Shown in pieces: positions 2,873 to 53,109 of a stretch of DNA of 59,829 bases; the stretch's first letter is position 1; the number at the start of each line of letters is the position of its first letter. The notes under the pieces are model-generated. The model saw nothing but the letters and a program-made list of their open reading frames with translations. It ran no database searches and had not been told where the DNA came from. Source of the stretch: Deltaproteobacteria bacterium (GTDB taxonomy: Bacteria; Myxococcota_A; Polyangia; HGW-17; JAJRWW01); the NCBI GenBank assembly GCA_029938605.1, contig JAOZUO010000027.1, positions 1 to 59,829 of the forward strand, given 5' to 3'. The position numbers and the translations under genes are program-made.

Positions 2873-2912
2873 ATTGGAGACTGGCAAGCGGTCACTTGGA
2901 AAGGAAGCCATC

Positions 2913-14000: not shown

Positions 14001-17000
14001 AGCCGATCCAGCTCCTCCAACAGGCGAACCCGGAGCTCCAGGGTTTCGCCCATCGGATCGTCCCTCGGGACCTCGCCGCCCGACTCCGCCTGTCGCCTCT
14101 CCGGAAGGTCAGGCAGCCGGTCCAAAAGCGCCAGCGCAGCGTCCGGCTGCGCCAGGTGCTCGGACAGGAGCCGAGCTCGCCTCAGACCCAGGCGACTCCG
14201 CTCTTCCACAGGCAACGCTGACCCCTCACAAGCCTGCTCCAGCAACCGCGCTAAAGGCTCGTACTGCCCTTCGCGCTCCTTGTGGGTGGCGAGTCGAAGC
14301 AGATCATCCAACCGCTCGGGCGCATGGGCCACGACGGCCTCCAACCACGCATAGGCGAGGTCGGGATCGGAATCGGCGGCGGCGGCTCCATCACCTTCGA
14401 TCCAGAAGGTCACGATGTCCGATAGCAGCGCCGCATCCTCGGTGGACGCATCCTCGCTGTCAACCAGCCGCGCCGCCAGGTCTTCCCCAGCCCGCCTCAC
14501 CGCCCCCACCAAACGCAACCGGTTGCGAGCGCTTCCACCTCCTCCTTCGATCAGGCGTCCGAGGGCCTCGGCCGAGGTGGGGTTCTCCTCGAGCACGAGC
14601 AGCAGACAGGTCTCGGCCTTCTCCGGCTCACCCGCGCGATTCAAATAGTGCTCGGCAGCCTCCAGCAGCAGCCCTTGACGATGCGCTGGCTGGTCGGCCC
14701 GTCGGGCATCCTCCTCCAGGGCCCGGGCCAGATCCCCATAGCGCCCCGCGTCACTGAGCAGTTGACGCTCCCGCGTTCTCAGAATCCGGGTCAGCTCCCC
14801 CGCCGGCCGGCCGGGCTCATCCGGGGCCGAAGGCGCCTCTCGGAGCACCCGCAGGGCGTCATCCAACCGCCCGAGGTGCTCGTACGCGTCGGCCAAAGAC
14901 AAGGCATCCCGGGGCTCGACGCGCAGATCCCGCAGCCACTCCATTACCTCCGCCGCCTCCCCCCACTCCTGCTCCGCCAATGACTGCAGAGCCCAACGGT
15001 GCAGCACCTGAATCAGTCCATCCCCCTCCATGGACGCCGAAGCGGCACGCCACGCCTTGCGGGCCAGCGCCGGGTCCTTAAGTGGCCCCAGCCACAAGTC
15101 CGCGATCTCGCGGTACAGTCCGGCCAGGAACGTCCGTCGCTCCGGCTCAAGGTGACCCTCAGACTTCAGGCGCCGCCCCAGCTCCTCGAGCTCCTGGACG
15201 CAGAGCTGATGGTCCCGCCGGATCGCCGCCGACTGGGCCAATCGAAAACGCGCCAGCTCATGGGTGGGATCGCGCTCCAGAGCCGCGGAGCAGCGTGCCA
15301 TCGCGTCCTCGGCATGATTCGGCACCAGCAGGTACAACCGTCCCGCCTCGGTCTGCAGGTCCGACACCCCCTCGTCGCCCCGGTCCAAGGCAGCAGCGAT
15401 GCGGCGGTCAATGACCGTGAGCAGCTCATAGGCCTGCCGCTGTTGCCGAGCCACCTCGCCCAACCGTTCCAGGGCCTCGGCATGATCCGGACGCAGCGCG
15501 AGGATCCGGTCGGCGGTCCGCGTCAGCTCTTCGGGATCATCCAGCCGATCGGCGGCCAGGGAGAGCATGGCATCCAGAGCTGCCAGGGAGAGGTCCTCAT
15601 CCCCCCGCAACCCGGCGCGATCGGCGAGCTCCGCACGAGCCTCGTAGGCCTCATTCCAGTCTCCCCGGGCTTCGTGGATCCGCGCCGCCAGCCCGTAGAC
15701 CTCGTCGCTGCGCTCATCCGCGGTCAGCTCCTTGAGGGCCTGCAGCGCTCCGGCAGGGTCGGCCAGGGCGTCGAGGCGCAGCGCACCCCTTTCGCAGATG
15801 GCGGCCACCCGTTCGACATCGTCGTCGGTATGCTCGGCGAGCCGGCCCAGGGCAAGCTCCAGCTGGGTTGGGTGATCCGCTTCGCGGGCGAGATCCACCA
15901 GGGACCGTAGCAGCGAAACCTCCTGACAGCCCTCAGCGTAGGCCTCCTCCAACAACTGGGCCCCGGCGGCCCGTTCGCCCAGCTCCTGTCGCAGAAGCGC
16001 CCCCAGCTCAAAGAGCAACTCGCCTCGGGAGGGCAGGCTCGCCGCCCCATCCGCCTGCGCCAGGGCAAGCAGACGCTCGAGGGTACGTCGCCGCTCCACC
16101 GGGTCCTCCCGAAGCTGCCGGAGCAGCCCCGCCAAGCGATTCAGGGTCGAGACATCATCCGGCGTGCGCCTCAGAATCTCGCGACACACCGCTGCCGACT
16201 CCCGGGGCAGGTCCAAGCGCTCCCCGAGGATCACCGACAGCCTGAGTAGCTGCTTCGCCGCCGCTCCCGCGTCAGACTCCCGCTCGGCGCGATGCCGCAC
16301 CACCTCGGCCAGTTTTTCCCACTGCCGCTCTCCTGAGTACAGCTCGTCGAGCAACTCCAGGGACTCACCGTCGGCCGGCTCGAGCTCCAGCACCGCCGCC
16401 AGGTGAGACTCCACCGCCTCGATCTCCGACCCCGCCAAGGCGATCTGAGCGAGGGCACGGTGTATGTCGAGGCGCGCACTTCGCTCCGCCTCGGGAGACA
16501 GTCCTTCGGAGGGACCCAGCTCCAATAGCCGAACGAAGGACTTTTGGGCCGTTTGGTGATCACCACACGTCAGGGCGTCCTGTCCCACGAACAGCAGACC
16601 AGCACGGTGATCTCCATCCAGCTCGAGGACTCGATCGTAGGTGGAACGCGCCGCCTGGGGGCGGTCGAGCCGCTCGGCGTACAGCATGGCGAGCTCATCG
16701 AGCAGAGTGACCGCGTCGTCGGTGGCATCCAGCAGCTCAATCTTACGCTCCAGTAGACGCGAGACCTCTTCCCAGTCTTCGGAGCTGGCCGCGATCACCG
16801 TGAGCCCGTTGAGCGCCCCGAGGTGATCTGGGCGCCGCCGCCCTATGCGCTCATAGAGCCGCCCTGCGCCGTCCGAGTCGCCAAGGCGCCGGCGCCGGAT
16901 CTCAGCCGCCGCGAAGAGTCGATCCACACGACTGGACTCCCCGAGCTCCGCCGCCTCGTCCTCTCCAGCCGCCTCCATGGTGTCAGCCGCCTCACCCCAA

Positions 17001-19897: not shown

Positions 19898-20056
19898 GTC
19901 TATCTCCAATCCCTATACCCCGCGAGTCATCTTCTTTAGGAGGCCAATGCTCGCTGTCGCAGTGTATCTCCCCGCCCCCGCCAATACCATAGGGAATCTG
20001 GCCAGTGACCTCACCCCCGGAGTCCATCATCAAGTCCACATCAGTGGAGGTACCGG

Positions 20057-25341: not shown

Positions 25342-26049
25342 CTATGGCCCCACGTTCCACGTAGATTGTGTGCAGTACTTGACCCGCTTGAGGGCCCGGC
25401 TGATCCGGCTGTGTACTCGGATCACCACCGCGGGTGCGATGGGAGAGCCCCCACGGATAATGCGCGACTTTCCCTGGTTCATGATCCACCGACGGATGCG
25501 GGCGGCCAGAGACTTGGGCATGGGCGCGAAGAGAATGCGGATCTCCACGTAGAACTTCATCTTCACCGGGAACCGCTTCATGGCCCCCACCAGCAGGGTC
25601 ACATTCGCAATGCGCCTCAGCGCCTTCCGGAGGCTATTTTCGCGGTAGAAGTGCGCACCCCAGGAGTCGTGCACAGAAATGCGATAGGTGCCTGCCCATA
25701 CGTCGTAGGAGACCCGGCAGTCCCGGATGATGGTCTTGATGCGCCGGTTCCCCTGCTTGCGAAAAACCGTAGCCTCCAGGTAGATGTGCCGTGAAATGCC
25801 CGACTTGAGCTTCTTCTTCAACCGCTTATCAAAGAACTTACGAAACTTGAAGGACAGCAGGATGTTCTTCTTCCGGGGGTCCTCGAAAAAGCGAACCACC
25901 TTCCAGCGACCATGGTGACACCTACGCGCAAAAGCGGGTTCCACCGATGCCGCCAGGCCCATGAGCACCAATAGCGCGACCAGCAGCACCCGGGGGGTGC
26001 GGCGACCACGGCTACGTGGGCCTTTACCTTGGTATCCAGCCCAGCGCAT
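25342..26049 (-). CDS. Secreted DUF4390-like protein
   Basis: 235 aa. The ATG at 26049 overlaps the end of the barrel gene by 26 nt and opens a basic N-region plus hydrophobic signal segment (VLLVALLVLMGLAASV, cleavage after AFA). The mature part is strongly basic: LLSFKFRKFFDKRLKKKLK, a beta strand region with VSYDVWAGTYRISV, then an EIRILFAPMPKSLAARI block. The order of elements and its place directly before an NtrY-type kinase match DUF4390 proteins known from other proteobacteria, whose function is unknown. A longer in-frame opening back to 26454 lies wholly inside the upstream gene and is rejected. The ribosome-binding site is weak, so translation is probably coupled. Confidence 0.62.
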   Translation of the reverse strand: MRWAGYQGKGPRSRGRRTPRVLLVALLVLMGLAASVEPAFARRCHHGRWKVVRFFEDPRKKNILLSFKFRKFFDKRLKKKLKSGISRHIYLEATVFRKQGNRRIKTIIRDCRVSYDVWAGTYRISVHDSWGAHFYRENSLRKALRRIANVTLLVGAMKRFPVKMKFYVEIRILFAPMPKSLAARIRRWIMNQGKSRIIRGGSPIAPAVVIRVHSRISRALKRVKYCTQSTWNVGP

Positions 26050-27616
26050 TGCCAAAAGAGAGGATGAAGACCCCGACGTAGGTATCCAGCCGGAAGCCAA
26101 CATCGAAGACCATATCAATGGGGGTGGCCTGCCGCAGCCCTTCGTCTCGGACGCGGAAGTCGTCCTCGGAGAGCATCGTGAGAAGCCCCACCGAGACGTA
26201 GAAGTTGGAGTTGTACACGAGTCGACCGCCCCGCGACAGCGGGATGTCGTAGCGTATGGCCATCCGTCCGGCGATGGTCTCATAGCGCTTGTCCACGATG
26301 GAGTTTGAAAAGAGGTTCCGACTCGGGCGGGTGGCAAAGTTGAGCCCCAGGGCCCTCCGGGGCACCTGCTCGTTGAGGTCACCGATGAAGAACTTGTTGT
26401 AAAGAGGGGTCTTGCCAATGATGACCCCTGCGTAAAGCTGCAGTGAGACGACATGGTGGTACCACGGCATCAGCCAGTACTTCTGAAATGACGCCACCAC
26501 CTTGGCGAACTGATAGCTCGATCCGATGTAGGTAGTGGCCAGCTCGGCGGCGATCTCCAGACGCATGCCGCTTGTGGGCATCACGGGGTCATTTCGGGTG
26601 TCCCGGACGAAGGTGGCGGCTACCGAGGACAGGAAGCTGTTGCCGTCAATCAGATCGAACGAGAGCCGCTCGGGGCGCCCGTCCGGGAAGAACCGCACGG
26701 CCCCCTGGGGAAGACTCGCGGTGATCCACTCGAACCGGAAGTCCAAATAGACCATGTTCTGGGAACCCAGGGCGCTAAACAAACCCAGGATGCCGCCCAG
26801 GCGGCTATAGCGCACCGCCGAGAAGTTCTCCACGTCCGAGCCGTTGGGGTTCTCGCCCTTGATGCGAAACAGATCGGACGCCTCTGCGTGCAGGAGCATC
26901 AGGGACATGCCCACCCGCCGGGCGAAGAGCCGTGGGTAGGAGAAGCGGAGCTGCTCCGCATGCTGAAGCCGTGCACCAGCGGCGACGTCCTTGGCCGCCG
27001 CCCCTACGACGAACGCGGCCGACAGATGCAATCCACGACCCAGGAAATTGTTCTCGGCCAGATCCAGCCCTCCCCAAAACGGCGTCGCGTTCGAGTATCC
27101 CAGGTGTAGCGCCTGCACGACGATGGTGCCGCGTTCACGCACCCAGATATTCAGGATCACGCGCCCGGGCTTCGACCCCTTGGACAGGGAGAAGGAGACG
27201 TCACGGAACAGGCCGCAGGCGAGTAACTTCAACCTCGCCTTGGCGATGCGCGGATCGGAGGCGGTGATAACGTCTCCCTTGCGGATCTCCAGCTTGTTCC
27301 GGATCACGCTGGGGTGGGTGGACCGGCGGCCTTGGATGCGGATGCGCTCCACCGTGTACCGGGGCGCATCGTCGGAGACGAACGCTCCCGGATGGGGCGA
27401 CAGCGCCGGACGCCCGGGTCGCGCATTCCCAGGACGCTCCACCGGTGCGGCCCGGGGACGCTCCACCGGTGCGGCCCGGGGACGCTCCACCGGTGCGGCC
27501 CGGGGACGCTCCACCGGTGCGGCCCGGGGTGCCGCGACCGCCTCGGTCCAAACCAGGCAACCAAGCACCACCATGGAGCAAGCGCCAGAGCGCCAAATGT
27601 GCGAAAGCCGCGGCAT
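26024..27616 (-). CDS. BamA/TamA-family outer-membrane barrel with short POTRA region
   Basis: 530 aa. Start at 27616 fits because GAGGAGG lies 6 nt upstream and a signal peptide follows (cleavage near AVAA). Residues about 28-65 are four nearly identical RPRAAPVE units encoded by a 24-bp tandem repeat. One POTRA domain follows (VERIRIQGRRSTHPSVIRNK to VILNIWVRERGTI, about 80-175), then a long beta-rich region consistent with a 16-strand Omp85 barrel (LGYSNATPFWGGLDLAENNF opens it). With a single clear POTRA it is smaller than BamA, which has five, and is more likely a TamA-like or specialised Omp85 protein than the essential BamA. First gene of an operon with the DUF4390-like protein and sensor kinase. 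Confidence 0.82.
   Translation of the reverse strand: MPRLSHIWRSGACSMVVLGCLVWTEAVAAPRAAPVERPRAAPVERPRAAPVERPRAAPVERPGNARPGRPALSPHPGAFVSDDAPRYTVERIRIQGRRSTHPSVIRNKLEIRKGDVITASDPRIAKARLKLLACGLFRDVSFSLSKGSKPGRVILNIWVRERGTIVVQALHLGYSNATPFWGGLDLAENNFLGRGLHLSAAFVVGAAAKDVAAGARLQHAEQLRFSYPRLFARRVGMSLMLLHAEASDLFRIKGENPNGSDVENFSAVRYSRLGGILGLFSALGSQNMVYLDFRFEWITASLPQGAVRFFPDGRPERLSFDLIDGNSFLSSVAATFVRDTRNDPVMPTSGMRLEIAAELATTYIGSSYQFAKVVASFQKYWLMPWYHHVVSLQLYAGVIIGKTPLYNKFFIGDLNEQVPRRALGLNFATRPSRNLFSNSIVDKRYETIAGRMAIRYDIPLSRGGRLVYNSNFYVSVGLLTMLSEDDFRVRDEGLRQATPIDMVFDVGFRLDTYVGVFILSFGNALGWIPR
27432..27527. repeat. Four perfect 24-bp tandem repeats
   Basis: Exact copies start at 27432, 27456, 27480 and 27504, in frame with the barrel gene, and encode the RPRAAPVE units just after its signal peptide. 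An in-frame minisatellite can change copy number without breaking the gene. Confidence 0.95.
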
Positions 27617-27634
27617 AGCCTCCTCGGCATGAGA

Positions 27635-27643
27635 TGATATAAT
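27635..27643 (+). promoter_or_regulatory. Extended -10 promoter for lipoprotein/receiver operon
   Basis: TGATATAAT: a perfect TATAAT at 27638-27643 preceded by TG at the extended -10 position, with no good -35. It would start transcripts near 27650, just before AAGGAG and the ATG at 27670. The minus strand of the same AT-rich patch (TATTAT) may serve the divergent barrel operon. Confidence 0.5.
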
Positions 27644-27669
27644 ACCCACCGATACTAAAGGAGTTCACC

Positions 27670-30194: not shown

Positions 30195-31232
30195 TTATTG
30201 GGAATAATCTGTACTCTGCGCGTCCACCGCCCGATGGGTGTGAGGTGCCACCTGGTCACCAGACTCCAGGCGCACTCCTTCCAATACGCAGTAGGGTTTT
30301 ACATGCACTCCATCGGCGAGGTGACAGTCACGCAAAACCACGCCCGTCTCCAGCCGACAGCGGTCGCCGATACGGGTCCGACCTGTAATCTCCACGCCGG
30401 CGGCAACCCGACAGTCGGTGCCGAACCGCACCGACGAGTGGACCACCACGCGCTCGGGGTCCTCCAAGAAAACCCCGCGGGCCATGAGCTTTGTCGACAC
30501 CCGTCGCCGTAGCACCTGGGCCACCGACGCGAGGTCTGCCCAGGTGTTCACCCCAGCAACCTCCAGGGGATCGCACTGCATCGCCACGGCGGAGTCATGG
30601 TCGCCGGCGGCGGCCACAAGATCGGTCAGGTACACCTCTCCGGTGGCGTTATCCGCACCCAAGCGACGGATCTCACGGCGCAAAAAACCCAGCTCCACGC
30701 AGTAGATTCCTGCGTTCACCTCGTCCACTTCGCGCTCCGGCCCGCTGGCGTCCAAGTACTCCACCACACGCCGCACCTGACGCCCCTCGCGTATCACCCG
30801 CCCATAGTGCGCGGGATCTTTGGGCCGCATGGTGAGCACGGCCATCTGGGCGTTACGCCGCTCCCGGAGCCGACGCAAACGCCCCAGGGTGCGAGCGGTG
30901 AGCAACGGCACATCTCCCGAGAGGATGAGCACCGATCCCTTGCGACCGCGCACCTTTGGGAGCGCCGCCGCCACAGCATCTCCAGTACCACGCTGCTGGC
31001 GTTGCAGGGCGAAACGAAGAGACTTGCCTTTGAACTGCCCCCTCAGCGCCCTCTGCACCGCCTCCTTTTGGTGACCCACCACCACCACCACCTCGCTCCC
31101 CTTCAGGCGCAAGGCCATTCGGACGGGATGTGCCACCAGCGGGAGCCCATCGAGGGGGAGAAGCATCTTCGAAAGAGAAGCGCGAAGCCGGGTGCCCCGG
31201 CCTGCGGCCATCACAATGCAGGATGTTGCCAT
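30195..31232 (-). CDS. GlmU-like sugar-1-phosphate nucleotidyltransferase
   Basis: 345 aa. The N-terminus MAAGRGTRLRASLSKMLLPL is the nucleotide-binding signature of NTP-transferases. The uridylyltransferase blocks of GlmU follow: QQRGTGDAVAAALP, SGDVPLL (metal-binding Asp), NAGIYCV and DNATGEVYLTDLV. A short left-handed beta-helix of hexapeptide repeats ends the protein (FGTDCRVAAGVEITGRTRIG onward). It is about 110 residues shorter than full GlmU, lacking the C-terminal acetyltransferase part. It therefore probably makes a UDP- or NDP-sugar without acetylating it, or depends on a second enzyme. It starts 21 nt after giant TPR gene 2 and shows no ribosome-binding site, so coupled translation is likely. 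Confidence 0.83.
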   Translation of the reverse strand: MATSCIVMAAGRGTRLRASLSKMLLPLDGLPLVAHPVRMALRLKGSEVVVVVGHQKEAVQRALRGQFKGKSLRFALQRQQRGTGDAVAAALPKVRGRKGSVLILSGDVPLLTARTLGRLRRLRERRNAQMAVLTMRPKDPAHYGRVIREGRQVRRVVEYLDASGPEREVDEVNAGIYCVELGFLRREIRRLGADNATGEVYLTDLVAAAGDHDSAVAMQCDPLEVAGVNTWADLASVAQVLRRRVSTKLMARGVFLEDPERVVVHSSVRFGTDCRVAAGVEITGRTRIGDRCRLETGVVLRDCHLADGVHVKPYCVLEGVRLESGDQVAPHTHRAVDAQSTDYSQ

Positions 31233-31253
31233 TGGCGGAAAGGGTGGCGAGCG

Positions 31254-42941
<11,688 letters not shown>

Positions 42942-43206
42942 CTGTCAAGATCCTTCAAGAGTTTTGGTGGAAACAGTCCGGAAATCCGGAAGGTATTTTT
43001 ACCACAATTCCCTGGGGCGGATCAAACGAAAAACCGTGCTGTTTTTGTGTGGTTCTGTGCGGTTAGGCCGGAAAAACCCGAACTGGTGGGAGATCCGCAC
43101 GGAGGACTGGCTCATCCGGCTATAACCGGCTCAGATCAGGTGTTGGACACAGGAAGCAAGAAGGAGTGGCACCAGCGGTGCCGGGGAGGAGGGAGACAGG
43201 ATTGGA
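42942..43206. other. Intergenic region between the FHA/AgmX gene and giant TPR gene 2
   Basis: 265 bp containing the hairpin at 43168-43182 and a TCCGGA-AA-TCCGGA symmetric element at about 42977-42990. A plus-strand reading frame crosses it but has no ribosome-binding site or recognisable protein. The leader of giant TPR gene 2 lies here; I see no convincing promoter. Confidence 0.4.
43168..43182 (-). terminator. Hairpin after the FHA/AgmX gene
   Basis: GGCACC-AGC-GGTGCC, perfect 6-bp stem, 25 nt past the stop at 43207, followed on the minus strand by a pyrimidine-rich but not T-only tail. Could be a partial terminator that lowers expression of giant TPR gene 2. Confidence 0.35.
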
Positions 43207-45468
43207 CTACCCTTTGGGTTTGAAGTGGAAGGGATAGCTCACGAAGGGCATGCTGCCTTCGGGCTTGGGGAACCGCCAGCGCCGAACGGCGCTCTTGATG
43301 CAGCCCTCGGTGCCGCCGTGGTTCAGAGTGGACTGCGAGATGGACACACGGCCCACGCCACCAGACGAGGTGATGGTGAAGGAGACCTTCACCATTCCTG
43401 CCAGCTGCGGGTTGCTGGGGAGACCGATGCTCATGTAGCAGTACTTGATCTCCGAGAGATGGCGCCGGATAACACGACGGATTGTCGCCGCGTCGAGTCC
43501 ACCAGTCACCGAAGCACGGCTCATGAAGACCCGGGGGCTGCGAGAGCGATATTTGCCCACGCCGAAGCCACGACCGCCGAGACCGAAGCCACCGCCGCCA
43601 CCGCCGCCGCCGCCCTTACCGAAGCCACCCCAGCCGCCGAAGCCCTGGCCACCAGCGCCGGAGCCACCGCCACCACGACCACCGCCGCCCAGACCCAGGC
43701 CGCCAAGACCGGATTCGTCACCCACCGTATGGCCCATGAGGGCGCCGAGGGCGTCTTCCGCCTCGGAGGAGACCGCAGAGTCACGACTGAACATGGATCC
43801 CAGTGTCTTATTCATGGACGAGAGCACGCCGAGCATACCAGCTCCCTTGCCCACCGAAGGCTTGGAGGAGGAGGCGTTGGGGTTGGGGGGGCCTGAGCCA
43901 AGAGCCTTGACTCGATCGTCGACCTTACCCGCAGGTCCCTTGATCTTCACGTTCTTGTCGAACTTCTGATTCTTCTTCTTTTCCTCTTCCTTCTTCGGCT
44001 TCTGCTTCTCCTCCTTGCGCTGGGCTTTCATCTCGTCCCGCAGCACCTTGGAGAAGCGCCCCTTACCCTCGAGGCTGTCGGACTCAAGAGAGTCCGCGCC
44101 GGTGGGTTTGAAGGCAAACAGAAGTGCGAACAGCCCGATCACCACAAAGGATCCGGTGGTGGTGAGGGTAATGGGCGCTGTGACCAGACCCGCGGCCGCC
44201 TCTGGGATTCCGCCACCAGCGATGGCCTTGCCGCTCGCTACGGTGTTGATGACGAAGGAGTTGTCGGCGAACTCGATCTTGGCGTGCAGCCCTTCGGGGA
44301 TGGGGAACTCATAGGCACCCTGGATCTCTCCGGAGGGGGTTGCCTGTCCCTGCTGGACCAGGTCCTCCAAAGACACCCGCGCGCCGCCGCCGATCTCCGC
44401 GTATCCATCCATTTTCGATGTGAATGTCATCAGGAACGCGTTGCCATCAGAGCGGACCAGAGGGAACTGAGCCGCTTCCGGGGGCAAGGCTTCCATAGGC
44501 GTATGGAAGGTGTTCTTGGGATGCTCCCCGATGGTGAAACGCGGTTTCTGGAGATCGTCCCGGGAGCGAAACACCCCCCAGAGGAATCCAAAGAGACCCA
44601 CGACAAATCCGAAGAAGCCAGCGAACTCCACACTCGAATTGGTACGAATCTTCGGCACGAACTTCTCGGGCAGACCGCGCTCCTTGATGAACTCCTTGAC
44701 CTTCGCCTGGTACACTTCCTGGCGCTTGACGTGCCAGACCTGTGCACCCATGGCGGCCGCACCGGCTACGGTCAAACCAAGGCCGAGGACCAAAGCGAGG
44801 ATCGCGACCATGGTCAGCCTCCCGGCCTTGGGATCCGGGAAATGGCGCACCATGTGGGCCGAGGTCTTGTACATGGCGATGACTTCGACGCTGCGGCTTC
44901 CGTCCACTGACTCCACAGTAGCGAGGTCGTCGGCCGTGAGCTCGGTGGCCACGAAGGACGAGGATCGCTTGAGCCCACCACCGGCACGGGCCACCACCGG
45001 AGGCTGGTAGCCCGCGCCCACATTCACGCCGGGCACAGCGGCCATGCCGGGCGCGGCGGGGATGGCGGGCGCCCCCATGGGAGCAGCGCCGGGAACCGGA
45101 GCGGACTGCAGCGTGGGAACGGCCGGAGCGGCAGCGCCGGCGGTGGCCGCTGCGGGAGCGCCGATCTCCACGACCACCTCGGTGTCGCCCAAGCGGATCC
45201 GATCGCCGCTGTTGAGCTTCGCCTTGTTTACCCGCTGTCCATTGACGATGGTCCCCTTTGCGGAACCCAGATCCGAGATGAAGATCTCGGTGGGGCTCGC
45301 CACCTGGATGTACGCATGCATCCGGGAGACAGACTCGTCATCGATTCTCAGGTGAGCGGAAGAAAGCTTACCTACCTTGATCACATCTTGTGTCAAGGTC
45401 TGCTCGCTAATCTGAGCGCCGCCCTTGAAAATTTTGAAGGTCAGCGGCACATTGCCTGCGCTACTCAT
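43207..45468 (-). CDS. gltG: FHA / AgmX-PglI C-terminal membrane protein (GltG/PglI candidate)
   Basis: 753 aa. Residues 1-103 are an FHA domain (IKVGKLSSAHLRIDDESVSRMH and SDLGSAKGTIVNGQRV are the phosphothreonine-binding loops). An Ala/Pro linker follows, then membrane segments at about 218-240, 282-300 and 434-453, a Lys/Glu-rich linker (460-520) and a Gly-rich hinge (588-640). The last 110 residues are an AgmX/PglI C-terminal, TonB-like domain (TIRRVIRRHLSEIKYCY, then GCIKSAVRRWRFPKP). With three membrane segments the FHA domain is cytoplasmic and the C-terminus periplasmic, as expected for a coupler that reaches through the cell wall. In Myxococcus, GltG (PglI) combines an FHA domain with TonB-like regions. 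GAGGAGGA precedes the ATG. It lies between the GltF-position gene and giant TPR gene 2. Confidence 0.85.
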   Translation of the reverse strand: MSSAGNVPLTFKIFKGGAQISEQTLTQDVIKVGKLSSAHLRIDDESVSRMHAYIQVASPTEIFISDLGSAKGTIVNGQRVNKAKLNSGDRIRLGDTEVVVEIGAPAAATAGAAAPAVPTLQSAPVPGAAPMGAPAIPAAPGMAAVPGVNVGAGYQPPVVARAGGGLKRSSSFVATELTADDLATVESVDGSRSVEVIAMYKTSAHMVRHFPDPKAGRLTMVAILALVLGLGLTVAGAAAMGAQVWHVKRQEVYQAKVKEFIKERGLPEKFVPKIRTNSSVEFAGFFGFVVGLFGFLWGVFRSRDDLQKPRFTIGEHPKNTFHTPMEALPPEAAQFPLVRSDGNAFLMTFTSKMDGYAEIGGGARVSLEDLVQQGQATPSGEIQGAYEFPIPEGLHAKIEFADNSFVINTVASGKAIAGGGIPEAAAGLVTAPITLTTTGSFVVIGLFALLFAFKPTGADSLESDSLEGKGRFSKVLRDEMKAQRKEEKQKPKKEEEKKKNQKFDKNVKIKGPAGKVDDRVKALGSGPPNPNASSSKPSVGKGAGMLGVLSSMNKTLGSMFSRDSAVSSEAEDALGALMGHTVGDESGLGGLGLGGGGRGGGGSGAGGQGFGGWGGFGKGGGGGGGGGFGLGGRGFGVGKYRSRSPRVFMSRASVTGGLDAATIRRVIRRHLSEIKYCYMSIGLPSNPQLAGMVKVSFTITSSGGVGRVSISQSTLNHGGTEGCIKSAVRRWRFPKPEGSMPFVSYPFHFKPKG

Positions 45469-45688
45469 TCGGTCCTCCTCTTCTGGCCCATAAGGCCATC
45501 CAGGGGCGAAAGTCTAACTGCCTCTAGGGCAGGGTTTGAGATATCGGACCTCGCCGCCGCATTGATTCTGTCTCTCTGCGGCACTTGGACAACCTCAGGT
45601 CCAGCCCGGTTCCATCTTTTTTTACAATGACCCGTTACCCTGTGGAACGTGGCCACCACGATCTGGAATCCGGACCCGCTGGGTCGCT

Positions 45689-45940
45689 TTAAATATCTTC
45701 AGCGGTCTTAAGCATTTCCGGAATAAAATCGAACCGATACTCAATCAAACTCTTGTGAATCGGCTTGACCCGGCCACCGAGGAACTCCCCTTCAGGAGTA
45801 AGCAGAGCACCCTCGATATTATCCCCTTCGAAGTCAAAGACCTTCTTTTTGGCGTAGCCCTTCTTCTGGGCTGAGGCGATGCCCACCCCAGCCAAGGTAA
45901 TGGTCAACGCCACCGTGATTCCGAGGATCTTCTTCCACAT
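45689..45940 (-). CDS. Small secreted protein in the GltF position
   Basis: 83 aa. Strong AGGAGG before the ATG; Sec signal peptide (cleavage after IASA, residue about 24). The mature 59 residues begin with a Lys-rich segment and then KVFDFEGDNIEGALLTPEGEF and a C-terminal helix IPEMLKTAEDI. It is too short to classify by known domains. It lies between the GltE-like and GltG-like genes, where Myxococcus has gltF, a gene for a small periplasmic protein, so that identity is likely from order alone. Terminator-like hairpins separate it from the upstream gene, so it probably has its own promoter. Confidence 0.75.
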   Translation of the reverse strand: MWKKILGITVALTITLAGVGIASAQKKGYAKKKVFDFEGDNIEGALLTPEGEFLGGRVKPIHKSLIEYRFDFIPEMLKTAEDI

Positions 45941-46006
45941 ATCGAACCTCCTGCGGTGCGGCGATCACCGGGTCACCCGACCCATGGACAACCACCAGAC
46001 ACCTTC

Positions 46007-46044
46007 AAAAACCTGGCACACCTGGCCGATTGTAACCGACCAGG
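46007..46044 (-). terminator. Intrinsic terminator candidate between the GltE- and GltF-position genes
   Basis: Read on the minus strand, 46044-46021 folds into a stem of 9-10 pairs including two G.U pairs that form only in this strand's RNA, with a short UACA-type loop. A run of five T (46011-46007) follows after nine bases. The strand preference of the wobble pairs supports function in the leftward transcript. Confidence 0.5.
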
Positions 46045-46068
46045 GGGATCAAACTCCAGAAGTAGTTA

Positions 46069-46107
46069 CCCGGGAGAGTATCACAATGAGAGAAACACTC
46101 TCCCGGG
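46069..46107 (-). repeat. Long inverted repeat, 11-bp perfect arms
   Basis: CCCGGGAGAGT (46069-46079) and ACTCTCCCGGG (46097-46107) around a 17-nt loop, 42 nt past the stop of the TPR lipoprotein gene. Directly beside it is the 12-nt palindrome TTGAAATTTCAA (46110-46121) and AACTAGTT (46120-46127). It probably protects or ends the upstream mRNA. Confidence 0.7.
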
Positions 46108-46149
46108 AATTGAAATTTCAACTAGTTACATCCCACGAGACATGGCCTA

Positions 46150-47661
46150 CTAGGGTCGCCTCATGGCCGGAGGCGACCGACGCGGCCGATTCCGACGCCG
46201 CTTGGCGTCCTCCTCCATCTTTTTCATCTTCGCCTCAACCACCCGCTGGTACGCGATCTCAGAGATCTGCTCCTTGGCCTCTTTGCGGGCCGAGCGACTC
46301 GTATACTTTCGCGGCTTGGCCAGATACTGCTTGTACCATCTCTCGGCCTTGTCCTTGTCGTTCACGTAGTCCATGTACAGATGGCCCAGGTTGTAGATCG
46401 CGTTTCCATAGTTGGGGTTGATGGACAGCGCCTTTTTGTACTGGGCGGCCGCCTTTTTGTAGAAACCATCCCGCCTCATGGGCGCTACCGTGGAGGCGAG
46501 GCCACGTAGAGCCACGCCCAATCCAACGATGGCGTCCACGCGCTTGGGCTGCTGCTTCAACACCCGGGTGAAACTGATGTGCGCGATCTTATAGCCACGG
46601 AACCCCAAGGCGATGGCCGCCCGGTTCATGTGAGCCTCGATGTTGTTGGCGTCGCACTTGAGGGCGGCCTCGAAGCGGTGCATGGCCTCCACCAGACGCT
46701 TGTCTCGGAGCAGGAGCAGACCGGTGAGGTTACGTAGCTGCGCCGCGGCCAGGTCGAAATCCGTGGGCGTCTCGGGGGTCTTGCAGTACTTATCCTTGAC
46801 CATGGGCCGCTTGAAGACCTTGAGGGCCTCCTTGAGCACAAGCTTGGCCAACATGAGCTTGGAGCGGTGCTTGCGCTTCTTCGACTGCTGGAAATACAGC
46901 AGGGAAAGCAGAGTATACGCCTTGAGGTTGAGCACCGCGGACCGCACGTCCTTGCCCGCGGAAGCCCGGGCCAACACCATGCGCAGGTGCGCTTCGGCGA
47001 TGTCGAAGGAGGTATTGGACTCGAACTTGAGCTTCCGCCAAAACCGCTTGAGTACCTCCGGCGCAGGCTCGCCCTTGCGCGCCTTTCTCTCAAAAATCAC
47101 CGCCAGATTATAGTTGGCGTCGATGTTCTGTGGGCGCGCCAGGAAGGCCTGGAGGAAGGTCTGGTAGGCCGCGGAGTGATTGCCGCCGCGGGCCGCCAGC
47201 TCGGCCAGGTTCACCTTGGCCGGAGCGTAGTTGGACACCGAGTTGAGGGCGGACTGATAGGCGCTCTTGGCCTTGGAGTCCAAGGCGCACTTGGAGTAGG
47301 CAACGCCCTGATTGAACCGGGCGCGGGCCACGGCCATCTTCTCACCGGAGACCTGCCGGGCGACACTATCGAAGGCGTCGGCCACCTTCTCGCAGTCGGA
47401 GCTGGTCCACTTGCCACCACGATTCGCGGCCTCCTTGAGGATGGCCTTGACGTCCTTCTCCACCTTCTTGAAAGCCTTCTTGGCCTTCTTGGAGAGCTTC
47501 TTCTCCTTTTTCTTCACGAAGACACTACCGCCACCGGTGCCGTCATCGGTGCCGTCACCGGTGCCGTTGCCGCCCGGGGTAGTGCCACCTTTCTTGCCGT
47601 TACAAGCCACCGCCAGCAGGAAAGAGCCGGCGACCATCAGTATCACGATTCGTTTTTTCAT
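46150..47661 (-). CDS. gltE: TPR lipoprotein (GltE/AglT candidate)
   Basis: 503 aa. AAAGGAGG precedes the ATG. Lipoprotein signal MKKRIVILMVAGSFLLAVAC, then a Gly/Thr/Asp-rich linker and a Lys-rich helix (residues about 52-75). TPR-type repeats fill residues about 105-460: RFNQGVAYSKCALDSKAKSAYQ, ANYNLAVIFERKA, AHMNRAAIALGFRGYKIAHISF, YGNAIYNLGHLYMDYVNDKDKA. The last 40 residues are very basic. It is a periplasmic TPR protein anchored to a membrane. In Myxococcus, gltE (aglT) encodes a TPR lipoprotein between gltD and gltF, matching this gene's place exactly. The gene begins 15 nt after the 1178-aa TPR gene. Confidence 0.8.
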   Translation of the reverse strand: MKKRIVILMVAGSFLLAVACNGKKGGTTPGGNGTGDGTDDGTGGGSVFVKKKEKKLSKKAKKAFKKVEKDVKAILKEAANRGGKWTSSDCEKVADAFDSVARQVSGEKMAVARARFNQGVAYSKCALDSKAKSAYQSALNSVSNYAPAKVNLAELAARGGNHSAAYQTFLQAFLARPQNIDANYNLAVIFERKARKGEPAPEVLKRFWRKLKFESNTSFDIAEAHLRMVLARASAGKDVRSAVLNLKAYTLLSLLYFQQSKKRKHRSKLMLAKLVLKEALKVFKRPMVKDKYCKTPETPTDFDLAAAQLRNLTGLLLLRDKRLVEAMHRFEAALKCDANNIEAHMNRAAIALGFRGYKIAHISFTRVLKQQPKRVDAIVGLGVALRGLASTVAPMRRDGFYKKAAAQYKKALSINPNYGNAIYNLGHLYMDYVNDKDKAERWYKQYLAKPRKYTSRSARKEAKEQISEIAYQRVVEAKMKKMEEDAKRRRNRPRRSPPAMRRP

Positions 47662-47676
47662 CGCTCGCCTCCTTTC

Positions 47677-50600
47677 CTAATTCTCACCGAATTTGAAATC
47701 GGCCTTATCAATGGTGGTTGACAGATATCCCGGCTTGGCTCGCCGCTCGTTCGCCAGCGGATAGTGGTCAGGCTCCAGACGATTGATCTCCCGCTCACAG
47801 AGCCGGGACCACTCGTTGAACCACCGCAGCTTCTTGGACAGGGCCAGGCAGATCTTGTAGCCTCCCTGCGCCTTGGCGAGCAGCGGATTGGCCACCTTCT
47901 CCATTTGGGCCTTGTAGGCGTCCCGGGCCGCGAAGCCCTTGAGGAACTTCGGCACCGGTGCGCTGAGCATCAGCTCAGCGAAGTTGTGGAAGATCATTCC
48001 GGCCCGGGCCACCGAGGCGATGGACCAGTGCGCGTCACCGCGCTTCTTACCGCCGATGTTCACTCGGATGGCGGTAATGACCGACATGAACTTCTTCACC
48101 AGCTTCCCGCCCGAAATCATCTTCGACTTGAGCCACTTGGTGAAGCGCTGAATGGACCGCTTCGCCTTCTTGGGATTTCTGGGGTTGAAGTCCATCTTTC
48201 GGGGTAGGCTCAATTTGAGGTACGCCTCGAACTGGAACTCCGCGCTCATGAACGCCGCCTGGGCGGCGTAGTTCCGGGCGTTGTTGATCTTCGACAACCG
48301 CTCCGGATCGTTCTTCGGGATCTTGAGCAGTCCGCGGCCCTTCGCCCAGACCCGCAGGGCACGGGCGAAGTACCGCTTCGCCGTACGCACGGTGGTGCCG
48401 ACCCGCTGGAGGTAGATGATCTTCTTCTGCTTCTTCTTTTTGCCTTTGCGCCGGTAGTACCGGATCCGAATGCACTGGCCGTGGGTCTGGGTCACCTTGC
48501 AGCTCCGTCGCCACCAGATGGCTCCCAACTTGGACAGGGCCTCTATGTACTTGTCCACCTCGCCCGCCTTGCCGTATTGCCGGGCGTAGCGGCTCAGGTT
48601 GATCAGGACCTTGTCCTCGTCGCCCTGGTTCTCGTACATCTTGACCACCAGCCAGAAGGACTTGGCGGACAGTTTCTTGTACTTACCGCCCTTGCGACTG
48701 TAGCGCTTGATGAACGCCGCGGCGTTTTTCATCATCTTGCGCTCCTCGCCGAGACCACCGCGGAGCACGATGCCCCACATGAGGCTTTCGGGCGCTTCCT
48801 TGCGCTTGGAGTACTTGTCGAAGAACAGCTCGTACCACTTGGCGGCCTCCTTGAAGAACGCCAGGTTGTGGAAGTTCCCCGCCAGGTAATACATGGACAG
48901 GGCGCGGTGCTTGGACTTTTTGAACCGCTGCACGATGGTACGGCGCATCTTCACCGCCGGACCCAGCATGCCGGCCGCCTCGTAGCAGGATCCAGCGTTC
49001 CAGAAGAAGGTGTCGAGGTTGCCCGCGGAGGTGTAGCGCGTGGCCATCTCCTCGTACGCAGCGCCGCACTCGGCGTACTTCTTGGACTTGCTGAGCTGCG
49101 TGGCGTCCGCCCACATGGCCTTCAGCTTGAAGTCATGCATCTTGGCGGCAAACTCCTCGTCATCCATGAGCTTCTTGCTGGCGATGAACTTGTCCACGTA
49201 CCGGCGAACGTCCCTGTAACGCTTCTTCACGGTGAGCATTCCGATGATCCGGAAGGCCGCCGTGCGCGCCGCCTTGGGCATGTCCTTCACGTGGTTCAAG
49301 GCCACCTTGAGGAACAGCGGGATCGCCTTGTCGAAGTGGTTGTGCTTCCAGTACATGTGGCCGGTGTTGAACACGATGGCCGGCAGGTACTTGGACTTGG
49401 GCACGTACTTGATGTAGGTCTTGAAGGCCTCGAGCATGGCCATCTGGGGGGCCGGGATCTCCGCTTTCGGATAGAGATAGGTCCACTCGACACAGCGCCG
49501 ACGCTTCCTCTTGGCGCAGACCTTTTTGCTCTTGGCCTTGCTGCCCATGGAGCTGATCTCTTTGCTGGTGATCTTGTTGGCCTTCATCCAACAACGCACC
49601 GCGGCCAAGGCCGCATCGTTGCGCTTTTTGATGTAGATCTTCTGGGTCATGGTGCGCGGCTTTGACGTCTTGACGATTTCCGTAAAGACGTGGGCCAGCT
49701 TCACCCACTCGTGCAACGGCACGTTCGGATTCTTCTTGTTGAAGAACCAGAGCAGGTCCGCGTACTGGTAGCGCATCAGGTAGATGACCTTCGATTTGGG
49801 ATAGGTCTTGATGTACTCCTCGTACAGGGAACGGGTCTTATCGAGGGTGTCCATGTTCTTGGTCTTCAGACCTTCAGCATGCCACTGGGTGGCCAGCATC
49901 TTCATGGTGTTCTCAGTAGAGCTCCGACACTGGATGACCTGCGGGGCCTTGCGGCCAAACTGCCTGGTCAGACTGAGGGTGACCTTACCGAGCAGCCTCA
50001 CGGAGGCCACCTGAGCGGCCTTGTTCCCCATATTGATGGTGGCGTCCACCATGGTGGTGGCCCACTGGCAGCGGTTCTTGTCACGGGGCCAGCGCCGCCG
50101 GGCTTCGCCGAAGACCTTGATGCAGTCGATATTCTTACCCTGGGCGTAGTACATGGTGCCCAGCAGCACGAACATCATCTTCGAAATGCGCGGACGCCCC
50201 TGGGACACGTTGTGGAAGAAGTTGTACGCCTTGTCGGGCCGGCCGATGTGGGTGTAGGCGCGGACCACGTCCTTGCGCGCCGCCTGGATCAGGTTCTTGC
50301 CACCCCGTTTGCTGCGGGAGACCTCGACGAACTTAGACAAGGCCATGCGATACTTTTTGAGGTTGAGGTAACACCAACCGATCTTGTAGTTGGCGTAGGG
50401 CGCCAGCGGCGAGTTCTTGTACCGGGCCACCTTCTGGAAGACGGCGATGGCCTCCACGATGCGGCGGTTGTTGAAGAAGAACTCTCCCTTGGCCAACAGG
50501 GCGTCCGGGATAAACCGGGAGCGCGGATGCTCCTTCACCAGACGACTGAACATGGCCATCATGATCTGCGAGTACTGCCGGGCCTTGGCATGTTTGCCGC

Positions 50601-51213
50601 GCTTCTTCTCCTGCTCGGCGAGACTCTTGGCGATGTCACCAACGGTGAAGATCACTTCGTCCATACGGTTGTAACTACCGTACTTTTTGTTGGTGGTGAT
50701 GCGCACGTACTTGGTCAGGGACTTGCGCAGCCAGTAGTTGGCCCGGGCGAAGTACAGCTTCTGCCGCTTGCGCAGCCTGTTGGCCAACCCTTTATTGCCC
50801 GCCTCCCCGGCCCGGAAGATCTTGTCGTGCATCGACATCCCGGCCTTCCACTGGTTCATGCGCATGGCGTTGTAATGCTCTGCCACGCGGAACAGGTAGT
50901 CCGGGTACTTGCCGGAGTCGGGATCTGCCAGCTTCAGGGTCGACTCGAGCAGCCGGATGCCCCGACGGATGAGCCCTTCCTTCTTAGAAGCGAGCTTCCG
51001 CAGCTTGGCCTGGGATTTTCGGATGTCCGACGCCGTGATCTGCTTGGCGGCGGTCATCTTCTTGGCAGCGGCCTTGGACAGCCTCTTGTGCTTGCCCATC
51101 TTTTTGATTTTGGACCCTTTACGCGTGCCCAACTGGGCTTGTGCGGTCTGGGCGCTCAGCAGTCCCAACGTGGCGGCAACCACGATGGCAAACGCAGTAC
51201 GCGATCTCATCAT
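47677..51213 (-). CDS. gltD: Large periplasmic TPR protein (GltD/AgmU candidate)
   Basis: 1,178 aa. GAGGAG lies 6 nt before the ATG at 51213. Sec signal peptide (hydrophobic core residues about 8-22, cleavage after AQA). The mature protein is unusually rich in Lys, Arg and aromatic residues and consists of TPR-like helix pairs, clearest at about 210-310 (SRLVKEHPRSRFIPDALLAK, EAIAVFQKVARYKNSPLAPY, YKIGWCYLNLKKYRMALSKF) and again at about 610-660 and 760-860. Size, export signal, TPR content and the position just before the TPR lipoprotein match GltD (AgmU), the large periplasmic TPR protein of the Myxococcus gliding complex. The extreme positive charge could help it bind the cell wall; that is inference. 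Confidence 0.8.
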   Translation of the reverse strand: MMRSRTAFAIVVAATLGLLSAQTAQAQLGTRKGSKIKKMGKHKRLSKAAAKKMTAAKQITASDIRKSQAKLRKLASKKEGLIRRGIRLLESTLKLADPDSGKYPDYLFRVAEHYNAMRMNQWKAGMSMHDKIFRAGEAGNKGLANRLRKRQKLYFARANYWLRKSLTKYVRITTNKKYGSYNRMDEVIFTVGDIAKSLAEQEKKRGKHAKARQYSQIMMAMFSRLVKEHPRSRFIPDALLAKGEFFFNNRRIVEAIAVFQKVARYKNSPLAPYANYKIGWCYLNLKKYRMALSKFVEVSRSKRGGKNLIQAARKDVVRAYTHIGRPDKAYNFFHNVSQGRPRISKMMFVLLGTMYYAQGKNIDCIKVFGEARRRWPRDKNRCQWATTMVDATINMGNKAAQVASVRLLGKVTLSLTRQFGRKAPQVIQCRSSTENTMKMLATQWHAEGLKTKNMDTLDKTRSLYEEYIKTYPKSKVIYLMRYQYADLLWFFNKKNPNVPLHEWVKLAHVFTEIVKTSKPRTMTQKIYIKKRNDAALAAVRCWMKANKITSKEISSMGSKAKSKKVCAKRKRRRCVEWTYLYPKAEIPAPQMAMLEAFKTYIKYVPKSKYLPAIVFNTGHMYWKHNHFDKAIPLFLKVALNHVKDMPKAARTAAFRIIGMLTVKKRYRDVRRYVDKFIASKKLMDDEEFAAKMHDFKLKAMWADATQLSKSKKYAECGAAYEEMATRYTSAGNLDTFFWNAGSCYEAAGMLGPAVKMRRTIVQRFKKSKHRALSMYYLAGNFHNLAFFKEAAKWYELFFDKYSKRKEAPESLMWGIVLRGGLGEERKMMKNAAAFIKRYSRKGGKYKKLSAKSFWLVVKMYENQGDEDKVLINLSRYARQYGKAGEVDKYIEALSKLGAIWWRRSCKVTQTHGQCIRIRYYRRKGKKKKQKKIIYLQRVGTTVRTAKRYFARALRVWAKGRGLLKIPKNDPERLSKINNARNYAAQAAFMSAEFQFEAYLKLSLPRKMDFNPRNPKKAKRSIQRFTKWLKSKMISGGKLVKKFMSVITAIRVNIGGKKRGDAHWSIASVARAGMIFHNFAELMLSAPVPKFLKGFAARDAYKAQMEKVANPLLAKAQGGYKICLALSKKLRWFNEWSRLCEREINRLEPDHYPLANERRAKPGYLSTTIDKADFKFGEN

Positions 51214-51332
51214 GAGGTACTCCTCACCTTTCCCCGGCGGCTATTGAGGATGTCTTCAGGCTGGCTGCCCAGAGGTCGACCTCCTCCGAACGGCTCAACT
51301 TTCAGTTTACACTGTTTTTGCATGCACGCACG

Positions 51333-53063
51333 CTACTTCGATGCCGCGGCACACTTGTTGCGCACCTGGAACCGATAGTAGCCCAGCTCGTCTTTCCAGT
51401 ACTCCCCGGTAAACGGCCAGATAACGTGCTCGTCATCGACTTTCACTTTCTGCAACTTGACCTGGACCTTGATGACCTGGCCACGCATCTTGACGTCGAT
51501 GCCCTTGATCTTGACCTGGTTGATCTCGTACAGGATGTTATTCGCCTTCACCAGCATGCCCCGGATCTCACTGAGCAGCCGCTTGAGGCGCAGCCTGGAC
51601 ATCTCGCCGGCCTTGGCCACGGCGAGGGACTTCTGCAGCGAGAGGTCCTGCACGATGGAGTCGGCAATAGCCGTGGTTTTCCAGTCCCGGGCCGCGCTCT
51701 CGACCTGCTTGAGCTCGCGATCCAGCTCGTGCACGTAATCGAACTGCCGACGCAGGGTGCGGTCCACCAGGGCGGACTTGGCGAAGCGACCGATCTGCTC
51801 GTCGAGATCCGAGGTACCCTTAATGATCTTCTTGGCGAAGTTGTAGAACTCGTTGTTGTCGTCCTTGTTGCGCTTGACGACCTTCCGCATGGATTCGAAG
51901 AGCGTCATGTACTTGGTGCGGAACTCGTTGACGGACTCCGTGGAAGCCCGATAGCGACAGTTCTTAAAGTAGATCACCGCCCGCAGCAGGAAGGACTCGG
52001 GGAAGAACATGGTCTCGAAGAACGGAGCGTTCAGCGTATGGATGTTTCCCAGCGCCTTCTGGAAGCCCGCGAAGTCCTGCTTAAAGATTCGGCGAAGCTC
52101 GGCGTCGAGCATGAAGAAGGACCAGCTCTCCTCGAAGAGGGACTGCAGCCAGTTCGGCGACCGCTGCGGGATCTCCTCGTAGTACTTGACGGCAAGGTGG
52201 AACATGTTCTTCGCCGCGCCGTACAGCTTCATCATGCGATCGGCCTTGGACCGCTGGGCGGCGGACAGGGCGATCTGACCGGCCTGGTAGAACACCCGGG
52301 CCAGGGAGAGCTTGGCGAGCTCCATGAACATCTTGATCCCGGGGCCCTTCTTCTGGATCTTGCCGGCCTCGCGGAGGATCTGCTTGAAGGCGCGGGAGGC
52401 CTTCACCGGGAAACCGCGGCGCACGTAGGTAACGCCCTCGAAGAACTTGGATCGGATGAAAAACTTGGAAGTGGGCTCGATGCGGCGGAAGAGCACGATG
52501 GCCTTGTCCCAGCTCTTGGTGTCGCCTTGACGATAGAAGAACCGGCCCAGGTAGAAGATCAGCTCGTCCCGGATGGAGGCCAGCTCCGGCGCGTCCAGGG
52601 CGGACTCCGGATACTTGCCGATCTTATCGAGGATACCCGCGGACTCAGGCAGCTTCCGCTGGAGGGAAGCCAGCCAGATCAACGTGGCCTTGTAATATTT
52701 GTGGGCATCCCCCTTCTCGACGATCTTGTCGAAGTAGCTCAGGGAGGCCGAGTAGAACCGTAAATGATAGAGCGACTTCCCCATGAAGAACTGGGCGCGC
52801 TCCTTCGTGGTCTCGTCGTCCTCCTTATGAGTGAGGACCTTGTGCAGGAAGATGGACCCGCTGTAGTAGTCCTTGTTCCCGTAGAACTTGATGGCTCGTT
52901 TCATGGTCTTGGACTCAGGCTTCGACTTGCCCACCTCGACCGGAGCGAAGACCATCTCTCCGCCCTCCTTATCAGCCTTTTTACGACCCTGTGCCTCGGG
53001 CACGGTAAAAACGACCACGAGTGCCACTGTCAGCAGGCCTACGCCAAGCTTGAACGCGCCCAT
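51333..53063 (-). CDS. Periplasmic TPR protein, first gene of the Glt-like cluster
   Basis: 576 aa. The start at 53063 is preferred over 53102 because AAAGGGG precedes it and a signal peptide follows directly (AFKLGVGLLTVALVVVFTVP, cleavage near AQG). TPR-type helices are seen at about 40-130 (AIKFYGNKDYYSGSIFLHKV, AQFFMGKSLYHLRFYSASL) and 165-260. The C-terminal 100 residues change to a beta-like segment (INQVKIKGIDVKMRGQVIKV). A periplasmic TPR protein near the cluster fits GltC of Myxococcus, though there gltC lies in a different locus; I therefore give no symbol. A sigma-70-type promoter (53164-53137) and nested inverted repeats sit upstream. The next gene, GltD-like, starts 119 nt downstream. 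Confidence 0.78.
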   Translation of the reverse strand: MGAFKLGVGLLTVALVVVFTVPEAQGRKKADKEGGEMVFAPVEVGKSKPESKTMKRAIKFYGNKDYYSGSIFLHKVLTHKEDDETTKERAQFFMGKSLYHLRFYSASLSYFDKIVEKGDAHKYYKATLIWLASLQRKLPESAGILDKIGKYPESALDAPELASIRDELIFYLGRFFYRQGDTKSWDKAIVLFRRIEPTSKFFIRSKFFEGVTYVRRGFPVKASRAFKQILREAGKIQKKGPGIKMFMELAKLSLARVFYQAGQIALSAAQRSKADRMMKLYGAAKNMFHLAVKYYEEIPQRSPNWLQSLFEESWSFFMLDAELRRIFKQDFAGFQKALGNIHTLNAPFFETMFFPESFLLRAVIYFKNCRYRASTESVNEFRTKYMTLFESMRKVVKRNKDDNNEFYNFAKKIIKGTSDLDEQIGRFAKSALVDRTLRRQFDYVHELDRELKQVESAARDWKTTAIADSIVQDLSLQKSLAVAKAGEMSRLRLKRLLSEIRGMLVKANNILYEINQVKIKGIDVKMRGQVIKVQVKLQKVKVDDEHVIWPFTGEYWKDELGYYRFQVRNKCAAASK

Positions 53064-53085
53064 GTGCAAAACCCCTTTATTCGTC

Positions 53086-53109
53086 CGGTTTCTAACCGTC
53101 ATTCGGTTA
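53086..53109. promoter_or_regulatory. Interlocking inverted repeats in the leader of the Glt-like cluster
   Basis: CGGTT (53086-53090), AACCG (53094-53098) and CGGTT (53104-53108) share one core, so the middle arm can pair with either neighbour; with the right one it makes TAACCG-TCATT-CGGTTA. Mutually exclusive hairpins between promoter and start codon suggest either a repressor with a repeated half-site or an attenuation switch. Confidence 0.4.

What the first reader, a model, noticed from the sequence alone, without database searches (positions are those of the whole stretch)
30195..53063. Glt-like (Myxococcus gliding) envelope machinery cluster
Seven collinear minus-strand genes encode, in order, a periplasmic TPR protein, a 1178-aa periplasmic TPR protein, a TPR lipoprotein, an 83-aa secreted protein, an FHA plus AgmX/PglI-type membrane protein, a 3,895-aa TPR giant and a GlmU-like enzyme. 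From memory, the M. xanthus order gltD-gltE-gltF-gltG-...-gltI has the same architectures. Seen: order, sizes, export signals, domains. Known: the Myxococcus genes form a trans-envelope gliding complex. Inference: these are homologues. The missing AglRQS motor, GltJ and OM barrels mean this may be an ancestral or non-gliding use of the machine.
Basis: partly seen in the sequence, partly recalled or inferred. Interest (0 to 1): 0.92.

Follow-up and report, generated by a model that had tools for sequence, protein, structure and literature searches.

The report
Gliding-machine gene cluster lacking its motor
This is a genuine relative of the cell-envelope gene cluster that lets Myxococcus glide over surfaces, ordinary for its phylum in itself, but found in a whole branch of bacteria that lacks the specific motor that drives it, which makes it a good test of what the machine does and what powers it.

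Summary
Window 31254-53102 (- strand) encodes, in order, GltC, GltD, GltE, GltF/CglF, GltG and GltI homologues. Four match NCBIfam gliding models (GltC E 1e-85, GltG 3e-95, CglF 1e-13, GltE 2e-15). GltD and GltI were confirmed against Myxococcus genomes, scoring far above the Nfs paralogue (GltD) and matching to the C-terminus (GltI). The GlmU-like gene is a non-conserved neighbour.

The cluster is common: GltC-type genes occur in 229/284 genomes of the phylum and the GltI end-domain in 143/143 good genomes of the class. This was outlined in 2011 (PMC3169522).

'Missing parts' is half right. A GltJ-architecture protein and one GltA/B-like barrel lie on other contigs. GltH was not seen; K was not tested. 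The gliding motor AglRQS (M1) is absent from all 13 genomes of the order and from 20/20 of another family, including a single-contig 13.2-Mb genome.

The only Agl-type motor left is M2-type, in a separate core cluster. Its first TolR-like subunit carries Asn at the proton-carrying Asp in 22/22 M1-lacking genomes, and Asp in 11/11 M1-bearing ones.

Verdict: a motor-reduced variant of a known machine; its power source is open and testable.

The parts
51333..53102 (-). gltC homologue (periplasmic TPR protein; likely start at 53063)
   Evidence: NCBIfam GltC NF033756 E 1.4e-85; best Myxococcus hit is G2 GltC, 213 bits versus 81 for the Nfs cluster
47677..51213 (-). gltD homologue (exported TPR protein, 1178 aa)
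   Evidence: M. xanthus GltD 254 bits, 24% over 1198 aa, versus 125 bits for NfsD; GltD search E 8e-61; tree places it with GltD of relatives having the same cluster
46150..47661 (-). gltE homologue (TPR lipoprotein)
   Evidence: NCBIfam GltE NF033758 E 2.2e-15; best Myxococcus hit is the G1 GltE
45689..45940 (-). gltF/cglF homologue (83-aa secreted protein)
   Evidence: NCBIfam CglF NF033764 E 1.4e-13; G1 GltF 46 bits, the Nfs-cluster counterpart nearly equal at 44 bits
43207..45468 (-). gltG homologue: FHA domain, three predicted TM helices (220-238, 282-300, 435-453), Gly-rich linker, AgmX/PglI TonB-like tail
   Evidence: NCBIfam GltG NF033760 E 3e-95, tail NF033768 E 6e-27; Pfam FHA E 7e-17; hydropathy versus 1 TM in Myxococcus GltG
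31254..42941 (-). gltI homologue (3895-aa cytoplasmic TPR giant with conserved non-TPR C-terminal domain)
   Evidence: 26% over 3125 aa to M. xanthus GltI, 815 bits; last ~545 aa alone 110-160 bits; C-terminal family in 143/143 genomes of the class
30195..31232 (-). GlmU-like nucleotidyltransferase with shortened C-terminus; adjacent gene, judged not a member
   Evidence: matches GlmU models at positions 5-334 of 459; not next to gltI in relatives

Best explanation
The cluster encodes the trans-envelope part of a Glt machine. GltG (cytoplasmic FHA, TM segments, periplasmic TonB-like tail) and the cytoplasmic giant GltI form the inner-membrane and cytosolic platform. The exported TPR proteins GltC, GltD and GltE with the small GltF form the periplasmic/outer-membrane side. 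As in M. xanthus, proton-driven cycles of the TonB-like tails would pull on the periplasm/outer-membrane side and move surface-attached material along the cell. In this lineage the dedicated AglRQS (M1) motor has been lost. GltJ-like and barrel proteins are encoded elsewhere. The machine is either driven by the remaining M2-type motor, encoded with its own GltC/D/E/G set and bearing one Asp-less TolR-like subunit, or works as an unpowered envelope scaffold. Shown here: homology, order, conservation, unlinked GltJ-like and barrel genes, M1 absence, the Asp-to-Asn change. Inferred: assembly, force transmission, use of the M2 motor, loss rather than primitive absence.
For: NCBIfam matches to GltC, GltE, CglF and GltG. 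Best Myxococcus hit is the gliding paralogue for GltC, D, E and I. Same C-D-E-F-G-(lipoprotein)-I order in relatives and in near-complete or single-contig genomes. GltI end-domain in 143/143 genomes. M1 AglR absent from 13/13 genomes of the order and 40/143 of the class including single-contig G350. Motor tree separates M1 and M2, with the M2 motors of M1-lacking genomes as one clade, 94/87. Asn at the conserved Asp in 22/22. GltJ-architecture protein elsewhere in the genome.
Against: In M. xanthus the M2 AglR (MXAN_3003) showed no two-hybrid interaction with GltG or NfsG (PMC3858216), and deleting M2 did not affect motility (PMC3169522), so an M2-driven Glt is not expected by simple transfer. 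GltH was not seen in the cluster, GltK was not tested, and GltA/B pairs were not found in this 92%-complete genome. No experimental data exist for the organism.
Confidence: 0.6

Rival explanations
1. A full gliding Agl-Glt machine whose M1 motor and outer-membrane parts merely lie on unassembled contigs.
For: The genome is a 92%-complete assembly in 359 contigs; GltJ-like and barrel genes were indeed found on other contigs, and a same-genus genome has a GltB-GltA pair not found here.
Against: M1 is missing from all 13 genomes of the order, from 20/20 genomes of family f10, and from the single-contig G350, while the M2 motor is found in most of them.
Confidence: 0.07
2. A paralogous, non-gliding complex of the Nfs (spore coat) or G4/G5 type rather than Glt.
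For: Glt and Nfs share components A-H; GltF hits the G1 and Nfs-cluster copies almost equally; the GltG tail matches the Nfs copy best; the deep nodes of the GltD tree are weakly supported.
Against: GltI, which Nfs lacks (PMC3169522), is present and full length; GltC and GltD score about twofold or more higher against gliding copies than against the Nfs-cluster copies.
Confidence: 0.13
3. The ancestral core complex that never had the gliding motor.
For: Group B core genes exist in non-gliding bacteria (PMC3169522); no M1 in the order.
Against: The cluster holds the group A genes gltF and gltI; M1 is present in Myxococcus and in many families of the same class, so primitive absence would need repeated gain.
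Confidence: 0.15
4. Unrelated TPR proteins that happen to be adjacent.
For: TPR repeats are promiscuous and several Pfam hits are only generic TPR.
Against: Family-specific hits to non-TPR parts (GltG tail, CglF, GltC C-terminus, GltI C-terminus) and conserved order across families.
Confidence: 0.01

Closest known systems
Myxococcus xanthus Glt gliding transducer (G1 gltD-E-F-G-H-I-J, G2 gltK-B-A-C)
   Same: GltC, D, E, F, G, I homologues in the same relative order; same domains and sizes (GltI 3895 versus 4132 aa)
   Different: gltC is linked to gltD; no gltH between G and I; gltJ-like and barrel genes unlinked; GltG has three predicted TM helices instead of one; no AglRQS (M1) in the genome
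M. xanthus Nfs spore-coat complex (nfsA-H)
   Same: Single cluster with C-D-E-F-G order and paralogous components
   Different: Nfs has no GltI and has barrels A, B and H in the cluster; sequence scores are lower for GltC and GltD
Group B core complex / M. xanthus G5-M2-type cluster
   Same: GltC/D/E/G-type proteins; a second such cluster with an M2-type motor is on contig C243 of this genome
   Different: The window cluster has no motor genes and carries gltF and gltI

Membership tests
Glt gliding transducer | GltC, GltE, GltF and GltG family membership | tested here: met
   NCBIfam E-values 1e-85, 2e-15, 1e-13, 3e-95, all scoring below the curated equivalog cut-offs, i.e. divergent members
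Glt gliding transducer | GltD and GltI most similar to the gliding copies | tested here: met
   GltD 254 versus 125 bits (NfsD); GltI 815 bits, including the non-TPR end
Glt gliding transducer | GltH encoded with the cluster | tested here: not met
   265-bp gap between gltG and gltI; a different TPR lipoprotein sits there in several relatives; the whole genome was not searched for GltH
Glt gliding transducer | GltJ (ZnR-GYF-TM-TonB tail) | tested here: inconclusive
   Architecture present at G000:C53:11175-13046 but far below the GltJ cut-off
Glt gliding transducer | GltA/GltB outer-membrane barrels | tested here: inconclusive
   One barrel at C323, nearest to a different M. xanthus cluster (C209); unlinked pairs in relatives of the order, none found in this genome
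Glt gliding transducer | GltK | not tested
   No query was run for GltK
Agl-Glt gliding machine | AglRQS (M1) proton-driven motor | tested here: not met
   No M1-clade AglR in 13/13 genomes of the order; only an M2-type motor
Agl-Glt gliding machine | Gliding motility dependent on the genes | not testable with these tools
   Needs a cultivated strain and mutants
Nfs spore-coat complex | No GltI; barrels A, B, H in the cluster | tested here: not met
   GltI present, no barrels in the cluster

The most novel reading that the evidence does not exclude
In these clades the Glt machine is powered by an M2-type motor whose AglQ-like subunit has permanently lost the proton-carrying Asp (Asn in 22/22) while its AglS-like partner keeps it: an asymmetric, one-aspartate axle. 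That would show that AglQ- and AglS-type subunits work as obligate heterodimers, a point described as unknown in PMC9389320, and that a single proton site suffices.
Probability: 0.15. Interest if true: 0.75.

Novelty: new variant of a known kind. Interest (0 to 1): 0.5.

Why it matters
What Glt-type complexes do without the gliding motor has been open since 2011. A clade, including complete genomes and one whole family, that keeps the C-D-E-F-G-I set but lacks AglRQS gives a natural experiment. If such bacteria glide, another motor must drive Glt; if they do not, the conserved function of Glt is something else. The Asp-to-Asn swap in the remaining motor also bears on whether AglQ and AglS act as a heterodimer.

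Tried and rejected
GlmU-like gene as a component: rejected, not conserved next to gltI. The GltI C-terminal domain as a degenerate M48 peptidase (from the motif REISFLRPEH): no Pfam or PDB support beyond TPR, and the single-sequence AlphaFold2 model was unusable (mean pLDDT 38). The C57 orphan GltG (53% identical) as a second Glt cluster: no other glt genes beside it. C269 as GltJ: it is a Ser/Thr kinase with an AgmX/PglI tail. Whole-genome download was not available. The GltD tree did not resolve the deep order of Glt, Nfs and other paralogues.

Full report
WHAT IS THERE. Translations show a 345-aa GlmU-like enzyme, a 3895-aa TPR protein without export signal, a 753-aa FHA protein with a TonB-like tail, an 83-aa secreted protein, a 503-aa TPR lipoprotein, a 1178-aa exported TPR protein and a 589-aa exported protein. 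NCBIfam gives GltC E 1.4e-85, GltG 3e-95 plus AgmX/PglI tail 6e-27, CglF (GltF) 1.4e-13 and GltE 2.2e-15. All score below the curated equivalog cut-offs, so these are divergent homologues of the Myxococcus proteins. Pfam sees FHA and generic TPRs.

GLIDING COPY OR PARALOGUE. M. xanthus was reached through a scan with a GltC alignment. G1 and G2 loci of M. xanthus, M. qinghaiensis and an Archangium, and the paralogous M. xanthus clusters, were fetched. BLAST: GltD 254 bits against the gliding copy versus 125 for the cluster assigned to Nfs; GltC 213 versus 81; GltE 66 versus 49; GltF 46 versus 44 (not discriminating); GltI 26% over 3125 aa, 815 bits, with the last 545 aa alone giving 110-160 bits, so this is not only generic TPR similarity. 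For GltG the FHA end is nearest the gliding copy, the tail nearest the Nfs copy. The assignment of contig C31 to Nfs rests on its gene order matching the published nfsA-H. The GltD tree puts the window with relatives that share the cluster (100/99) but does not resolve the deep order of paralogues.

CONSERVATION. GltC-family genes are in 229 of 284 genomes of the phylum. Relatives (G003, G005, G014, G015, G017, and the 13.2-Mb single-contig G350 and near-complete G349) carry all or part of the same C-D-E-F-G-I run in this order; several have a TPR lipoprotein gene between G and I. The GltI C-terminal domain is in 143/143 genomes of the class (at least 90% complete), mostly in ORFs of 3300-4100 aa; shorter TPR proteins share it (for example G000:C289, 1411 aa). 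What follows gltI varies, so the GlmU-like gene is a neighbour only. Phylum Myxococcota is inferred from named records identical in contig length to relatives (SKYG55 = G014:C89; JAADFL01 = G021:C25).

THE 'MISSING' PARTS. On contig C53 (11175-13046, -) a 623-aa protein has a zinc ribbon, GYF-type segment, proline-rich linker, one TM helix and a TonB-like tail, the GltJ architecture. The NCBIfam GltJ model gives only 50.6 and 30.6 bits, far below its cut-off, so orthology is not settled. Contig C323 has a GltA/B-like barrel followed by GltC-, GltD- and GltE-type genes and a ZnR protein with TPRs; its barrel is nearest the M. xanthus C209 cluster. Unlinked GltB-GltA pairs occur in relatives of the order (G001:C115, G003:C102, G006:C4, G007:C25) but were not found in this genome. 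GltH was not seen in the cluster; GltK was not tested.

THE MOTOR. Own-genome MotA/ExbB proteins number five. Only the one on C243 is Agl-like, with two TolR-like genes and a full GltC/D/E/G-like set beside it. A tree of AglR-like proteins separates M1 (M. xanthus gliding AglR, 245 aa as published) from M2. With an M1 profile, genomes having M1 score at E 1e-76 or better (one truncated copy at 3e-60) and others at 1e-41 to 1e-59. By this gap M1 is absent from 13/13 genomes of the window's order, and from 40/143 good genomes of the class: 6/6 of the order, 20/20 of family f10, 9/10 of f11 and five others; 103 have it (counts made by hand from the table). The single-contig G350 excludes missing sequence as a general cause. 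Since M1 is also in Myxococcus, a different class, loss is the simpler reading; this is inference.

A SIGNATURE IN THE REMAINING MOTOR. The M2 motors of M1-lacking genomes form one clade (94/87) beside those of M1-having genomes (long branches noted there). In 22 of 22 M1-lacking genomes read, the first TolR-like subunit has Asn at the conserved Asp (NLLPIMNLICLL, DPLIPIMNLVCML, ANLIPIMNIMLLL), and the second keeps Asp where it was read. In 11 of 11 M1-having genomes, M. xanthus included, the M2 first subunit keeps Asp. Related genomes are not independent, so this is one or a few events, not 22. In M. xanthus the analogous AglQ D28N abolishes proton conductance and paralyses the machine, and the M2 AglR (MXAN_3003) does not bind GltG or NfsG (PMC3858216); M2 deletion leaves motility intact (PMC3169522). 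Whether AglQ and AglS form heterodimers is stated as unknown (PMC9389320).

MECHANISM. Following Agl-Glt models (PMC5349195), GltG and a GltJ-like protein would reach through the peptidoglycan with TonB-like tails and pull on the outer-membrane side; GltI would scaffold on the cytosolic side. GltG of this class has two extra predicted TM helices between FHA and the crossing helix (window, C57, G014, G018, G007), against one TM in Myxococcus GltG and NfsG; this does not track with motor loss, as G014 has M1. Power by the M2-type motor, or no power, remains open.

NOVELTY. The cluster belongs to a known kind: Luciano et al. 2011 (PMC3169522) described the core, its spread and gltI in Myxococcales. 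I found no paper in the library describing Glt without M1 or the Asp-to-Asn change, but most subscription papers are not held. I rate it a new variant with moderate interest.

Noticed in passing
window 8099-19909 (-): A second giant TPR ORF, 3936 aa with TTG start, outside the finding; Pfam finds only TPR families.
   Followed up: partly
G000:C57:16108-18333 (L013, +): Orphan second GltG, 53% identical to the window's, beside an ORF of about 2100 aa and no other glt genes; the same contig has an ORF of about 1540 aa with a GltG-like segment.
   Followed up: partly
L050 (G000:C243), 2222-3577 (-): The motor's first TolR-like subunit has Asn at the conserved Asp; the same in all 22 M1-lacking genomes read.
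   Followed up: yes
L312, L313, L314, L315, L316, L311: In several M1-having genomes the M1 and M2-type motor operons lie side by side and divergent; some M1 loci have two AglR copies in tandem.
   Followed up: no
L051 (G000:C269), 961-2943 (-): Ser/Thr protein kinase ending in an AgmX/PglI TonB-like tail; this tail is spread over many proteins of the genome.
   Followed up: no
L290 11374-13014; L063 4941-6551; L289 13751-15760; L298 14867-16585: An FHA-domain protein gene converges on gltI from downstream in several relatives, but not in the window.
   Followed up: no
window 26024-27649 (-): 541-aa Omp85/POTRA-type protein with a PRAAPVE repeat near its N-terminus.
   Followed up: no
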